Positions 5-4,103 of a stretch of 8,617 bases of DNA are shown in pieces. The stretch is from NCBI GenBank assembly GCA_946887385.1, contig CAMPKU010000197.1:1-8617 (forward strand), given 5' to 3'. Position numbers and translations under genes: made by a program. The DNA is from an uncultured Gammaproteobacteria bacterium (GTDB lineage Bacteria; Pseudomonadota; Gammaproteobacteria; Rariloculales; Rariloculaceae). Position 1 is the first letter of the stretch, and every line of letters starts with the position of its first letter. Under the pieces are notes generated by a model that saw nothing but the letters and a program-made list of their open reading frames with translations, was not told where the DNA came from and ran no database searches.

Positions 5-34
5 TTGTCTGAGCCCTCCGGCTCGTTCTATCAT
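5..34 (+). promoter_or_regulatory. Candidate sigma70-type promoter for the thiamin operon
   Basis: A -35-like TTGTCT (5-10, 4 of 6 matches to TTGACA) is followed after 18 nt by a -10-like TATCAT (29-34, 5 of 6 matches to TATAAT). This would start transcription near 40-42, just before the TPP aptamer that begins around 48. That is where a riboswitch leader should start. The call rests on motif match and position only; the spacer is 1 nt longer than the optimum and also contains an inverted repeat. Confidence 0.45.
11..24. repeat. Short inverted repeat in the promoter spacer
   Basis: GAGCC (11-15) and GGCTC (20-24) form a perfect 5-bp inverted repeat around a 4-nt loop, between the proposed -35 and -10 boxes. 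The following bases are T-rich but not a true T-run. It could be the end of a weak terminator for a gene lying left of the window, or an operator-like site. Neither can be decided from the sequence. Confidence 0.3.
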
Positions 35-47
35 TCTCGCGAATCTG

Positions 48-139
48 GACCGAGGGGTGGCCGGCGACGGCCTGAGAGATCGACGACGAGTCGATCAACC
101 CTTTGAACCTGATCCGGTTAGTACCGGCGAAGGGACGGG
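48..139 (+). promoter_or_regulatory. TPP riboswitch (THI element) aptamer
   Basis: This RNA element binds thiamin pyrophosphate and turns down downstream expression when TPP is plentiful. All conserved blocks are present in order. GGGGTG (54-59) pairs through GGG/CCC with 99-101 as P2. GCCG/CGGC (60-63/68-71), capped by a GCGA tetraloop, is P3. The invariant CTGAGA lies at 72-77. An optional P3a hairpin pairs ATCGAC with GTCGAT (79-84/90-95). The CTTTGAACCTGAT block is at 101-113, the P5 stem CCGG/CCGG is at 114-117/124-127, and GCGAAGGGA is at 127-135. P1 looks short (CCG 50-52 with CGG 136-138, possibly extended by GGA/TCC across a bulge). The element lies 60 nt upstream of a TonB receptor heading a transport and kinase cluster, which fits thiamin uptake. 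No intrinsic terminator follows, so control is probably at translation. Confidence 0.96.
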
Positions 140-167
140 ATATCCGATCTTCCCCGCTCGCTAGTTG

Positions 168-196
168 AACCGGATCTCGCTCGTAGAGGAGATCCG
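168..196 (+). promoter_or_regulatory. Riboswitch expression platform: SD-masking hairpin with alternative partner
   Basis: CGGATCTC (171-178) and GAGATCCG (189-196) form a perfect 8-bp stem with a 10-nt loop. The Shine-Dalgarno sequence AGAGGAG (185-191), 8 nt before the ATG at 200, lies across the loop and the 3' strand, so the hairpin would hinder ribosome binding. The 5' strand with two preceding bases, AACCGGATC (168-176), is also perfectly complementary over 9 bp to GATCCGGTT (111-119) in the aptamer P4/P5 arm. The two pairings cannot coexist. Inference: TPP-bound aptamer leaves 168-178 free to mask the SD (off), while ligand-free aptamer releases 111-119 to capture 168-176 and expose the SD (on). 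Confidence 0.7.
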
Positions 197-2343: not shown

Positions 2344-2619
2344 ATGCGCGTCACCGCCGAAATGAGCTTGTATCCCCTTCAGGGCCAGCCGATCGAGAAG
2401 ATCCTAACGTTCATCGACACGGTTTCCAGCCAACCCGGCGTCGAAGTCGTCGTGAACCAGCTGAGCACGCAAATGCGCGGCGAGCTCGGCGTGGTGATGA
2501 GCACGCTCACCGCGGCGATCGAGCGCTCGTTCGGCGCCGGCGGCGCGCAAGCGCTGGTGCTGAAAATCCTCAATGCGGATTTGCCGATCGGCGAGCCACC
2601 GATTCTCGAGCAGAAGTAG
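2344..2619 (+). CDS. Small thiamine-binding protein (MTH1187/YqgV family)
   Basis: This 91-aa protein matches the thiamine-binding family once called DUF77 (Pfam Thiamine_BP, MTH1187/YqgV/YkoF-like). These are small ferredoxin-like folds that bind thiamin or hydroxymethylpyrimidine compounds. Visible hallmarks are the opening strand MRVTAEMSLYPL, a helix with IEKILTFIDTV, a second strand VEVVVNQLSTQMRGEL, and a helix LTAAIERSFGAGG before a final strand ALVLKILNAD. The length is typical for a single-domain member. No signal peptide or membrane segment is seen, so it should be cytoplasmic. It starts 8 nt after the receptor stop, with AGGTG (2334-2338) overlapping that stop as a modest ribosome-binding site, suggesting translational coupling. 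Its place between outer- and inner-membrane transporters suggests a role in buffering, delivery or sensing of imported thiamin; that role is inferred. Confidence 0.85.
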   Translation: MRVTAEMSLYPLQGQPIEKILTFIDTVSSQPGVEVVVNQLSTQMRGELGVVMSTLTAAIERSFGAGGAQALVLKILNADLPIGEPPILEQK

Positions 2620-2628
2620 CTAGCCCAG

Positions 2629-3234
2629 GTGGATGTCGTGGCGCTCGTGCGTGAGCTGCCGCCACTCGAGGCGGCCGGCGTGCTGTTCGGCGTGTTGTAC
2701 CTCGTGCTCGCGATTCGCGAAAGCCTTTGGTGCTGGCCCGCGGCGTTCATGTCCTCGGTGCTCACGATCGTTGTGATGTTCGGCGCGCGGCTGTATTCGG
2801 AGGCCGCACTGAACGTTTTCTACGCTGCGATCGCCGTCTACGGCTGGTACCAATGGCGTTACGGCGGCAGGCGCAGCGGCGAAAGCGAGCTGCCGATTAG
2901 CGTGTGGCCGCTGAAGAACCACATGCTCGCCATCGGCGGCAGTGTTGCGCTGAGCGCGGCGCTTGGCTGGCTCATGAGTCGGCATACCGATGCCGCGTAT
3001 CCGTATCTCGACGCGTTCGTCACCGTGTCGTCGATCGTCACGACGTACATGGTGGCGCGCAAGCTCCTGGAGAACTGGCTGTATTGGCTCGTCGTCGACA
3101 GCTTGAGCATGTATCTGTACTGGCAGCGCGGGCTCAATCTGTACGTGGGGCTCTTTGGGATCTATCTCGTGCTCGTCGTGATCGGCCTCGTTCGTTGGCA
3201 TCGCGACTGGCGCGCGCAGCCGGCAACCGCATGA
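2629..3234 (+). CDS. pnuT: PnuC-family carrier, probable thiamin transporter PnuT
   Basis: This 201-aa integral inner-membrane protein of the PnuC family carries vitamin-like substrates by facilitated diffusion, with later phosphorylation trapping them. About seven hydrophobic segments are visible (near 13-29, 36-51, 58-75, 97-115, 124-142, 148-164, 170-189). Family signatures include ESLWCWPAAF (31-40), the aromatic YGWYQWRYG (71-79) and ENWLYWLVVD (148-157), the last being the well-conserved substrate-channel segment. The start is a GTG at 2629, 9 nt after the previous stop; the ribosome-binding site is weak, and GTG at 2638 or 2647 are alternatives. Family members carry nicotinamide riboside (PnuC), riboflavin (PnuX) or thiamin (PnuT). 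The TPP riboswitch and thiamine-binding neighbour point to thiamin. The stop overlaps the next start by ATGA, tying it closely to the kinase. Confidence 0.88.
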   Translation: MDVVALVRELPPLEAAGVLFGVLYLVLAIRESLWCWPAAFMSSVLTIVVMFGARLYSEAALNVFYAAIAVYGWYQWRYGGRRSGESELPISVWPLKNHMLAIGGSVALSAALGWLMSRHTDAAYPYLDAFVTVSSIVTTYMVARKLLENWLYWLVVDSLSMYLYWQRGLNLYVGLFGIYLVLVVIGLVRWHRDWRAQPATA

Positions 3235-4103
3235 CGCACACGGCAGCCAACGTTGCAGCGGCACGCGCGGCGCTCGAGCGTGTCGCCGGCGATGCTGATG
3301 CGCAGCGCGCGCGGCTCGAGCCGCTCGCCGGCGGCACGCACCGGCGCAGCTGGCTCGTGACGTTCGCGGACGGGCGACGCGCCGTGCTGCGCACACCGGT
3401 AGGCCGCTCGAACGCGCTGCTCGATCTCGCTACGGAGACGCGCGCCATGGACGCGGCCGCGCGCGCCGGAGTGGCGCCACGCGTGCTCGCGGCCGACGCG
3501 GCGAGCGGCGCGTTGCTCACCGACTATCGGGACGGTGCGCCATGGACGCCCGCCCAAGCGCGCGAGCCAAGCAACCTCGAGCGGCTGGCGGCTTTGCTGC
3601 GCACACTGCACGCGCTGCCCATCCAGCTGCCGGTGTTCGCGGCCGAGCGCATCGCCGCGCGCTATCTTGCTGCGCTGCCTTCATACGTGCGGGAGCCGAG
3701 CGCGGCGGAGTGGGGCGACGAGCTGCTTACGTTGACGCGGCGTTACGACGTGCGCTACGCGCCCACGGCGTTCTGCCACAACGATCTCGCAGCAGCCAAC
3801 GTGCTGGACGACGGGCGGCTGGCCCTCGTGGACTTCGAGTATGCTGTGCGCGCCGATCCGCTGCTCGATGTAGCGAACGCCGCCGTCATGAACGGGCTCG
3901 GTGCCGAGGAGCAACGCGCGCTGCTCACGGCGTATCGGCGAGCGGTGCCGGCCATGGCCGAGCTCGAGGAGCTTGCGTGGCTCCTGCGAATGGTGCGCCT
4001 CATGGCGTGGTTTTGGGCTTTGCTCGGAGAGGCGAGCGCCGACGACGCGTCGCTGTACGCGACGTACGTTGCGGAGCTCGGCGAGCGGTTGCGACAGGAC
4101 TAG
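3231..4103 (+). CDS. APH/choline-kinase-fold phosphotransferase, probable thiamine kinase
   Basis: This 290-aa cytoplasmic kinase belongs to the aminoglycoside phosphotransferase/choline kinase superfamily, which includes the E. coli thiamine kinase ThiK. The N-lobe has a nucleotide loop LAGGTHRRSWLVTF (32-45) and the ATP-lysine region RRAVLRTP (49-56), where Arg stands at or near the usual Lys. The catalytic loop is CHNDLAAAN (182-190), with H183, D185 and N190. The metal-binding DFE is at 201-203. The ATG at 3231 overlaps the carrier stop as ATGA, so I prefer it to upstream in-frame starts inside pnuT. Coupling to a PnuT-type carrier behind a TPP riboswitch suggests it phosphorylates incoming thiamin to TMP, trapping it; the cell would then need ThiL to make TPP. 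Choline or another small alcohol as substrate cannot be excluded from sequence. Confidence 0.82.
   Translation: MTHTAANVAAARAALERVAGDADAQRARLEPLAGGTHRRSWLVTFADGRRAVLRTPVGRSNALLDLATETRAMDAAARAGVAPRVLAADAASGALLTDYRDGAPWTPAQAREPSNLERLAALLRTLHALPIQLPVFAAERIAARYLAALPSYVREPSAAEWGDELLTLTRRYDVRYAPTAFCHNDLAAANVLDDGRLALVDFEYAVRADPLLDVANAAVMNGLGAEEQRALLTAYRRAVPAMAELEELAWLLRMVRLMAWFWALLGEASADDASLYATYVAELGERLRQD

What the first reader, a model, noticed from the sequence alone, without database searches (positions are those of the whole stretch)
111..196. Mutually exclusive pairing links the TPP aptamer to the Shine-Dalgarno hairpin
Seen in sequence: AACCGGATC (168-176) is perfectly complementary over 9 bp to GATCCGGTT (111-119), inside the conserved P4/P5 arm of the aptamer. 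The same bases form the 5' strand of an 8-bp stem (171-178 with 189-196) that masks the SD at 185-191. TPP binding requires 114-117 to pair within P5, freeing 171-178 to mask the SD; without TPP the 9-bp pairing can form and expose it. This is a complete translational switch built from one duplicated 9-nt motif, with no separate anti-sequestor element.
Basis: partly seen in the sequence, partly recalled or inferred. Interest (0 to 1): 0.72.

Follow-up and report, generated by a model that had tools for sequence, protein, structure and literature searches.

The report
Vitamin B1 switch masking ribosome site
The leader of a probable vitamin B1 uptake operon carries a TPP riboswitch in which a sensor strand and the ribosome-binding site compete for the same short complementary strand; this looks real and conserved, but it is a member of a well-known kind of RNA switch.

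Summary
In detail: 111-119 and 168-176 are 9-bp complements, 171-178 and 189-196 form 8 pairs over the Shine-Dalgarno (SD) site, and 111-119 lies in the P4/P5 arm of an RF00059 TPP aptamer. In this leader alone the match is not significant if the whole aptamer is searched (p 0.16). Relatives make it convincing. Of 71 orthologous TonB-receptor leaders, 27 are long, 38 start right at the aptamer, 6 are unclear; the P5-strand complement lies 10-75 nt after the aptamer in 23 of 27, 0 of 38 and 0 of 6. In a pooled set, 55 of 78 long leaders have it (10.8 expected), 28-43 nt before the start, thiC leaders included. Best reading: a translational strand-exchange TPP riboswitch, probably committed during transcription. 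Corrections: the motif repeated between aptamer and SD flank is 6 nt, not 9; folding predicts easier, not free, SD access without TPP; E. coli thiM has a complement at the same register (8 pairs, not significant alone), so the principle is not new. In a phylum sample it is a minority solution (14 of 74). No probing data exist here.

The parts
5..34 (+). sigma-70-like promoter, TTGTCT-18-TATCAT, 9 of 12 matches; would start RNA just before the aptamer
   Evidence: 1 found, mean 0.0 in 50 shuffles; consensus match only. A CTATCAT also stands before the aptamer of L081 (by eye)
43..152 (+). TPP riboswitch aptamer (RF00059), including the optional hairpin 79-95
   Evidence: 73.9 bits against gathering 54.3; pairs listed
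111..119 (+). P4/P5 5' strand GATCCGGTT: 114-117 form P5 with TPP; anti-sequestor without TPP (pairs 168-176)
124..127 (+). P5 3' strand CCGG, partner of 114-117 in the aptamer
   Evidence: in alignment A2, 116-125 is AT instead of GC in 5 of 45 leaders, the same five in which 116-171 is A-T
168..178 (+). shared switching strand AACCGGATCTC: 168-176 pairs with 111-119 (ON), 171-178 pairs with 189-196 (OFF)
189..196 (+). 3' strand of the SD-masking stem, GAGATCCG; 191-196 repeats aptamer 111-116
185..191 (+). Shine-Dalgarno sequence AGAGGAG, 8 nt before the start codon
200..2335 (+). TonB-dependent outer-membrane receptor, probable thiamine/TPP uptake
   Evidence: Pfam PF00593, PF07715; substrate inferred from the riboswitch and neighbours, no NCBIfam family reaches its cut-off
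2344..2619 (+). small YkoF-like ORF, possible thiamine-binding protein
   Evidence: PF07615 20.1 bits, just under its cut-off of 21; no NCBIfam hit; a relative, L116:427-702, passes PF07615 and PF01910 Thiamine_BP
2629..3234 (+). PnuC-family inner-membrane vitamin transporter; thiamine as its substrate (PnuT) is inferred
   Evidence: PF04973 180.1 bits; TIGR01528 nicotinamide riboside transporter PnuC 73.9 bits, above its cut-off of 42.45
3231..4103 (+). APH-fold kinase from the ATG at 3231; possible thiamine kinase
   Evidence: PF01636 88.4 bits; best NCBIfam hits both below cut-off: NF041256 GntI 109.4 of 357, TIGR02721 thiamine kinase 65.3 of 299; start position

Best explanation
It is a translational OFF-type TPP riboswitch controlling a probable thiamine-scavenging operon by strand exchange. 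With TPP, 114-117 is held in P5, so 171-178 is free to pair with 189-196 and bury the SD. Without TPP, 168-176 pairs with 111-119, which dismantles P5, blocks later TPP binding and removes the 5' strand of the SD stem, so ribosomes can load. Because ligand-free folds are computed to be far more stable than the aptamer once about 165-175 nt are counted from window position 1, the decision is probably taken during transcription. Shown by sequence: the aptamer, both pairings and their conservation. Inferred: TPP binding by this copy, ligand-dependent change at 168-196, the effect on translation, and kinetic control.
For: RF00059 aptamer and SD geometry. Complement of the own P5 5' 7-mer 10-75 nt after the aptamer in 23 of 27 long and 0 of 38 direct TonB leaders (Fisher p 8e-14; rows are related, so this overstates). 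55 of 78 long leaders with 7 or more contiguous pairs against 10.8 expected; best aptamer partner of the anti-SD region is the P4/P5 5' strand in 57 of 78 against 15.4 expected. Anchored leaders (57 of 78): aptamer 116 A with platform T 7, C 2; 116 G with C 37, T 10, G 1 (p 0.002 without the G-G case). 62 leaders whose strand is not GATCCGG match their own platform in 13, against 4.9 when swapped, maximum 11 in 2000 permutations. On the preselected alignment A2 the ON helix pairs in 96.0% and the OFF stem in 92.4% of cells, with 9 and 8 double-changed cells, reached by 0 and 2 of 500 shuffles. No terminator-like site in 1-400. Opening 185-191 costs 9.2-11.3 kcal/mol with the aptamer forced and 2.1-7.6 with the 9-bp helix forced.
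Against: Folding shows no clean opening of the SD: mean unpaired probability of 185-191 is 0.19-0.26 free against 0.15 with the aptamer forced, and coding sequence re-pairs it in the 43-230 fold. The free 43-205 RNA keeps the SD stem (about 0.8). 23 of 78 long leaders lack a 7-pair complement; so does L118, left out of the 78 by my filter. In the swap set the plain GATCCGG strand would also fit 11 of 62, because U171 pairs with G as well: only L207, L242, L247 and thiM fit their own strand and not GATCCGG, while ThiC leaders L179 and L194 fit GATCCGG and not their own. Widening the search to 130 nt finds the complement in 3 of 38 direct leaders (L035, L052, L056). Numbers of double-changed pairs (92 and 130 of 500 shuffles as high) and of further pair types (99 and 50 of 500) are not unusual. 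The computed gap against the aptamer, 11-18 kcal/mol from transcript end 165 on, exceeds what TPP binding normally pays.
Confidence: 0.8

Rival explanations
1. The SD hairpin is a constitutive or P1-coupled brake; the P5 complement is a by-product of a GATCC repeat near the SD, and switching runs through another alternative helix (anti-P1 as in E. coli thiC).
For: In E. coli thiC the longest duplex is CTTGTCGGA/TCTGACAAG and the P5 5' strand has only 6 pairs, in line with the published anti-P1 stem (PMC5234074, passages). In the free 43-205 fold the SD stem persists without most of the 9-bp helix. A single leader is not significant on its own (p 0.16).
Against: In the window the next best aptamer-platform duplex scores 16 against 23, p 0.947. 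The complement recurs in 55 of 78 long leaders at 28-43 nt before the start. Nucleotides outside the SD stem (168-170) also pair with 117-119: 117-170 in 57 of 57 anchored leaders, 118-169 in 47, 119-168 in 39.
Confidence: 0.11
2. Control is mainly transcriptional (Rho-dependent or intrinsic termination) with translation following.
For: E. coli thiC and tbpA TPP riboswitches also change mRNA levels (PMC5234074 and PMC11487190, passages).
Against: No terminator-like site in 1-400; the conserved elements sit on the SD close to the start codon. Rho sites were not tested.
Confidence: 0.05
3. Chance complementarity between a conserved aptamer motif and a GC-rich leader.
For: For this leader alone p 0.16 over the whole aptamer; GC-rich sequence makes 7-pair runs common (10.8 of 78 expected).
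Against: 55 of 78 observed; 0 of 38 in direct leaders within 75 nt; own 7-mer complement in 69 of 155 leaders against 7 of 155 for the reversed 7-mer and 3 of 155 for a repeat of it.
Confidence: 0.03

Closest known systems
E. coli thiM TPP riboswitch (translational)
   Same: Aptamer P4/P5 5' strand TGATCTGG complements platform CCAGGTCA, 8 contiguous pairs, 39 nt before the start, with an SD stem just downstream. SD masking on ligand binding and an unpaired SD without ligand are stated in PMC4112796 (for a TPP analogue) and PMC3280964 (passages).
   Different: In thiM the complement abuts the anti-SD strand TTGCTTCT; in the window 171-176 serves both helices. The thiM duplex is not significant alone (p 0.23) and is not its best-scoring one. 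The published thiM alternative pair, as I recall it, is GAAG 83-86 with CUUC 108-111; the thiM papers I asked for were not held.
E. coli thiC and tbpA/thiB TPP riboswitches
   Same: Exchange between an aptamer-disrupting helix and an RBS-masking stem, with sensing during transcription (PMC5234074, PMC11487190, PMC8609307, passages).
   Different: The published ON helix is called anti-P1. In my scan thiC's longest duplex is on the aptamer's 5' side (p 0.33) and thiB's on the P5/P4 3' strand (p 0.15), not on the P5 5' strand.
Direct-type TPP riboswitches (RBS within the aptamer's 3' end)
   Same: Same aptamer and same receptor family in 38 of 71 leaders; the category is described in PMC2258182 (passages).
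   Different: No separate SD hairpin; the start lies 6-14 nt after the aptamer's AGG(G/A).
Eukaryotic TPP riboswitches controlling splicing
   Same: Part of the P4-P5 region pairs elsewhere in the RNA and is withdrawn when TPP binds (PMC2258182, passage).
   Different: The target is near a 5' splice site, not an SD-masking strand.

Membership tests
TPP riboswitch (RF00059) | Covariance-model match above gathering score, full length | tested here: met
   73.9 against 54.3, model positions 1-105
TPP riboswitch (RF00059) | Binds TPP | not testable with these tools
   conserved core present in the alignment; binding not measured
TPP riboswitch (RF00059) | Lies upstream of thiamine genes | tested here: inconclusive
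   PnuC-family transporter above cut-off, but named for nicotinamide riboside; YkoF-like and thiamine-kinase-like ORFs below cut-off. Relatives with the same platform precede ThiC (L093)
Translational strand-exchange (sequestor/anti-sequestor) platform | Stem that buries the SD | tested here: met
   171-178/189-196; 92.4% of cells paired over 45 preselected leaders
Translational strand-exchange (sequestor/anti-sequestor) platform | Alternative helix incompatible with both the aptamer and the SD stem | tested here: met
   111-119/168-176 overlaps P5 and the SD stem; 96.0% of cells paired over 45 preselected leaders, 55 of 78 unselected
Translational strand-exchange (sequestor/anti-sequestor) platform | SD more accessible in the ligand-free fold | tested here: inconclusive
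   opening cost falls by 1.2-7.6 kcal/mol depending on transcript length and stretch, but unpaired probability barely changes
Translational strand-exchange (sequestor/anti-sequestor) platform | Ligand-dependent change in vitro or in cells | not testable with these tools
   no experiment available
anti-P1 platform of E. coli thiC type | Alternative helix uses the P1 strands | tested here: not met
   best aptamer-platform duplex in the window is on the P5 5' strand; no other duplex scores better than p 0.947
Direct translation attenuation (SD in aptamer) | Start codon within about 15 nt of the aptamer's 3' end | tested here: not met
   start is 65 nt after AGGG in the window

The most novel reading that the evidence does not exclude
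A distinct subtype of translational TPP platform, common in one gammaproteobacterial order and shared with E. coli thiM, in which the SD flank mimics the aptamer's P5 5' strand so that one 11-nt strand chooses between sensor and ribosome site; orthologous receptor genes have exchanged it for the direct type during evolution.
Probability: 0.45. Interest if true: 0.45.

Novelty: new member of a known kind. Interest (0 to 1): 0.33.

Why it matters
Expression platforms vary so much that covariation analysis has been hard to apply to them; a 2026 study built whole-riboswitch models for terminator-type TPP switches and found only two nucleotides shared between aptamer and platform (PMC13273304, passages). 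Here a translational TPP platform shares seven to nine nucleotides with the aptamer over dozens of leaders, so it can be modelled and tested directly. It also offers two natural designs, strand exchange and direct masking, in front of the same receptor gene, which would let the cost and benefit of each be compared.

Tried and rejected
Larger ON helix: the window's lowest-energy 43-230 fold also pairs 123-138 with 144-165. The platform stretch before the switching strand complements the aptamer's CCGGCG.AGGGA at p 0.05 or less in 2 of 57 leaders, so this part is not conserved and is not claimed.

Genome of the window: none is held. I used 76 receptor loci, 147 genomes of the order of L001's genome and 120 genomes of its phylum.

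What the 78 are: long leaders pooled from the receptor loci plus the window (29) and from the order sample (49). Own 7-mer complement in place: 22 of 29 and 32 of 49, 54 of 78 together. In one search, 20 regex hits were dropped as not aptamers; one of them, L118 (strand GATCTAG), looks like a real long leader and has at best 5 of 7 pairs, so 55 of 79 would be fairer. Start codons came from a rule (frame, SD, ATG); those of L030, L059, L075 and L116 were set by hand, and all 27 starts were fixed in the script. Six of 71 TonB leaders stayed ambiguous and are outside the 27 against 38 comparison; none of the six has the complement. The two counts of 23 of 27 differ by one leader: L068 passes contiguous pairs, L014 passes the own 7-mer.

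Preselection: alignment A2 holds 45 of the 58 leaders, and those 58 are what was left after 20 of 78 were dropped by hand as lacking the element or deviating. Its near-perfect ON pairing is partly due to that.

Generality: in the phylum sample 24 of 74 long leaders have 7 or more pairs against 16.9 expected; 14 of 74 have the own 7-mer complement in place. Some lineages seem to use the P4 5' strand or the P5/P4 3' strand; not followed.

Tree: 67 of 71 receptors were long enough. The long/direct label needs three changes, one of which rests on L042 and L059, rows with very long branches that look mistranslated.

Literature: searches were (listings only), and passages were seen of PMC5234074, PMC3280964, PMC2258182, PMC11487190, PMC10907184, PMC8609307, PMC4112796, PMC13273304 and PMC6414600. 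None of what I saw describes a P5 5'-strand anti-sequestor in bacteria. Rodionov 2002 and Winkler 2002 are recalled, not read; PMC1920254, PMC2018614 and PMC3597705 were not held. I do not claim it is absent from print.

Full report
What is there. The window begins with a leader that holds a full TPP riboswitch aptamer (RF00059, 43-152, 73.9 bits) and ends at an AUG at 200 with SD AGAGGAG at 185-191. A promoter-like TTGTCT-18-TATCAT at 5-34 would start the RNA just before the aptamer, and no terminator-like hairpin was found in 1-400. Downstream stand a TonB-dependent receptor (200-2335), a small YkoF-like ORF (2344-2619, just under the Pfam cut-off), a PnuC-family transporter (2629-3234) and an APH-fold kinase (from 3231) whose NCBIfam matches, GntI and thiamine kinase, are both far below cut-off. 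With the riboswitch this looks like a thiamine-scavenging operon; the substrate is inferred.

The observation. 111-119 and 168-176 are perfect complements (9 bp), 171-178 and 189-196 form 8 pairs over the SD, and the aptamer strand lies in P4/P5. On this leader alone the finding is not secure: searching the whole aptamer against the platform, shuffled platforms reach the same score in 16% of cases; restricting to the P4/P5 5' strand gives p 0.005, a choice made after seeing the match.

Relatives of the same gene. A profile of 26 receptors found 76 loci in genome contigs. Of these, 70 carry the aptamer's 3' half upstream (three of the other six have under 200 nt of upstream sequence), so with the window there are 71 leaders. 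Start distances are bimodal: 38 leaders start 6-14 nt after the aptamer (direct), 27 have 62-80 nt (long), six are unclear. The complement of each leader's own 111-117 strand stands 10-75 nt after the aptamer in 23 of 27 long, 0 of 38 direct and 0 of 6 unclear leaders; within 130 nt, in 23, 3 and 0. One of the three, L035, has an in-frame ATG 107 nt after the aptamer behind CCCGGATCC and GAGGATCGG, so it may be a long leader that I filed as direct. The complement thus follows the kind of platform, as the switching model requires.

A wider set. RF00059 was found in 113 of 147 genomes of the order of L001's genome, mostly once per genome. Pooled with the receptor loci, and after removing repeats and hits judged not to be aptamers, 78 long leaders remained. 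In 55 the P4/P5 5' strand has 7 or more contiguous pairs with the platform against 10.8 expected from shuffled strands, 28-43 nt before the start. Over the aptamer's 3' half the best partner of the anti-SD region is the P4/P5 5' strand in 57 of 78 against 15.4 expected. In 57 of 78 leaders the element can be anchored by GG(A/G)T(C/T) alone, leaving four columns free to test: 117-170 pairs in 57; 116-171 is G-C 37, G-U 10, A-U 7, G-G 1, A-C 2; 118-169 pairs in 47 (U-A 32, U-G 12, C-G 3); 119-168 pairs in 39. Five of the A-U cases are in alignment A2, and there 116-125 in P5 is A-U too, so the aptamer base, its P5 partner and its platform partner differ together. All seven A-U leaders precede ThiC (Pfam for L093; N-termini by eye for the other six), so the design is not tied to the receptor gene. 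They may be one clade. Two ThiC leaders, L179 and L194, have the mismatch A-C.

Independence. Rows are related, so p values overstate. In a swap test, among 62 leaders whose strand is not GATCCGG, 13 match their own platform against 4.9 on average when strands are exchanged among them, maximum 11 in 2000 permutations. This is weaker than it looks: GATCCGG itself would fit 11 of the 62, since U171 pairs with G as well. Four leaders fit their own strand and not GATCCGG (L207, L242, L247 and E. coli thiM); two fit GATCCGG and not their own (L179, L194).

Structure statistics. On A2 (45 leaders, preselected) RNAalifold predicts P4/P5 plus the SD stem. The ON helix pairs in 96.0% of cells with 9 double-changed cells (0 of 500 shuffles), the OFF stem in 92.4% with 8 (2 of 500); sliding either helix by one to three columns drops the paired share to 8.6-64.7% and 19.6-58.9%. 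The number of double-changed pairs and of further pair types is not unusual for either helix.

Folding. With the aptamer forced, the SD stem has probability 0.99 or more except for its end pair (0.83-0.91), and opening 185-191 costs 9.2-11.3 kcal/mol; with the 9-bp helix forced it costs 2.1-3.3 for RNAs ending at 196-205 and 6.1-7.6 for ends from 215 on; in the 43-230 fold 209-216 pairs with 183-190. As the RNA grows from 43, the 9-bp helix dominates at ends 180-190 (0.96-0.97), the SD stem competes at 200-210 (0.75-0.79), and the 9-bp helix dominates again from 215. The gap between free and aptamer-forced ensembles is 5-6 kcal/mol at ends 140-150 and 11-18 from 165 on. TPP affinities of 50-500 nM (PMC3280964) to 8 nM for thiM (PMC4112796) correspond to roughly 9-11.5 kcal/mol by my conversion, so TPP would compete best before the switching strand emerges. 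This argues for commitment during transcription, as reported for E. coli thiC and tbpA (PMC5234074, PMC8609307, passages). Tertiary contacts are not in the model, so this is a lead, not a result.

What is known. Translational riboswitches with a sequestor and a mutually exclusive antisequestor are standard (PMC2258182, passages), and TPP riboswitches are a prime example of strand exchange (PMC10907184, passages). E. coli thiC's published ON helix is anti-P1; my scan's longest thiC duplex is on the aptamer's 5' side (p 0.33), thiB's on the P5/P4 3' strand (p 0.15), and thiM has TGATCTGG with CCAGGTCA at the window's register (p 0.23, second best). None of the three is significant alone. In eukaryotes the P4-P5 region pairs near a splice site (PMC2258182, passage). 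So the principle is known and the window is a new member. What may be new is how strongly one order has settled on this strand: 32 of 49 leaders of the order sample against 14 of 74 in the phylum sample.

Verdict. A real, conserved translational TPP riboswitch of a familiar kind.

Noticed in passing
L005, L006, L008 and 35 other loci: 38 of 71 orthologous receptor leaders have no separate platform: the start codon follows the aptamer by 6-14 nt. On the receptor tree the long/direct label needs three changes, one of them doubtful; L028 and L037 are direct inside a long clade.
   Followed up: partly
L093, L110, L120, L125, L131, L133, L191 (thiC leaders): ThiC leaders with a P5 strand GATCCAG carry T at the platform position that faces A116; L179 and L194, also thiC, keep C and so a mismatch.
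   Followed up: yes
L116 and L135 (two places 7.7 kb apart on one contig): Two TPP riboswitches with very similar platforms on one contig. L135 precedes a TonB receptor; in L116 the platform's ATG opens only an 8-codon frame, and a YkoF-like ORF that passes the Thiamine_BP cut-off starts further on.
   Followed up: partly
L085:755-1447: A second TPP riboswitch in L001's genome, with a P5-strand complement, stands before a methyltransferase-domain ORF with no obvious thiamine role.
   Followed up: no
L035, about 80-107 nt after the aptamer: A leader filed as direct also carries CCCGGATCC, GAGGATCGG and an in-frame ATG downstream, as if both platform types were present.
   Followed up: partly
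L202, L205 (phylum sample): The platform carries TCAGGTTCG, complementary to the aptamer's TGAACCTGA (P4 5' strand), suggesting that other lineages use a neighbouring aptamer strand as anti-sequestor.
   Followed up: no
L059 and L075, 8 nt after the aptamer: Long-type leaders that also carry an AUG at the direct-type position, by my count out of frame with the receptor start chosen; possibly a relic or an upstream ORF.
   Followed up: no
window 2344-2619: Small YkoF-like ORF between receptor and PnuC-family transporter, a candidate thiamine-binding protein that matches Pfam just below its cut-off.
   Followed up: partly
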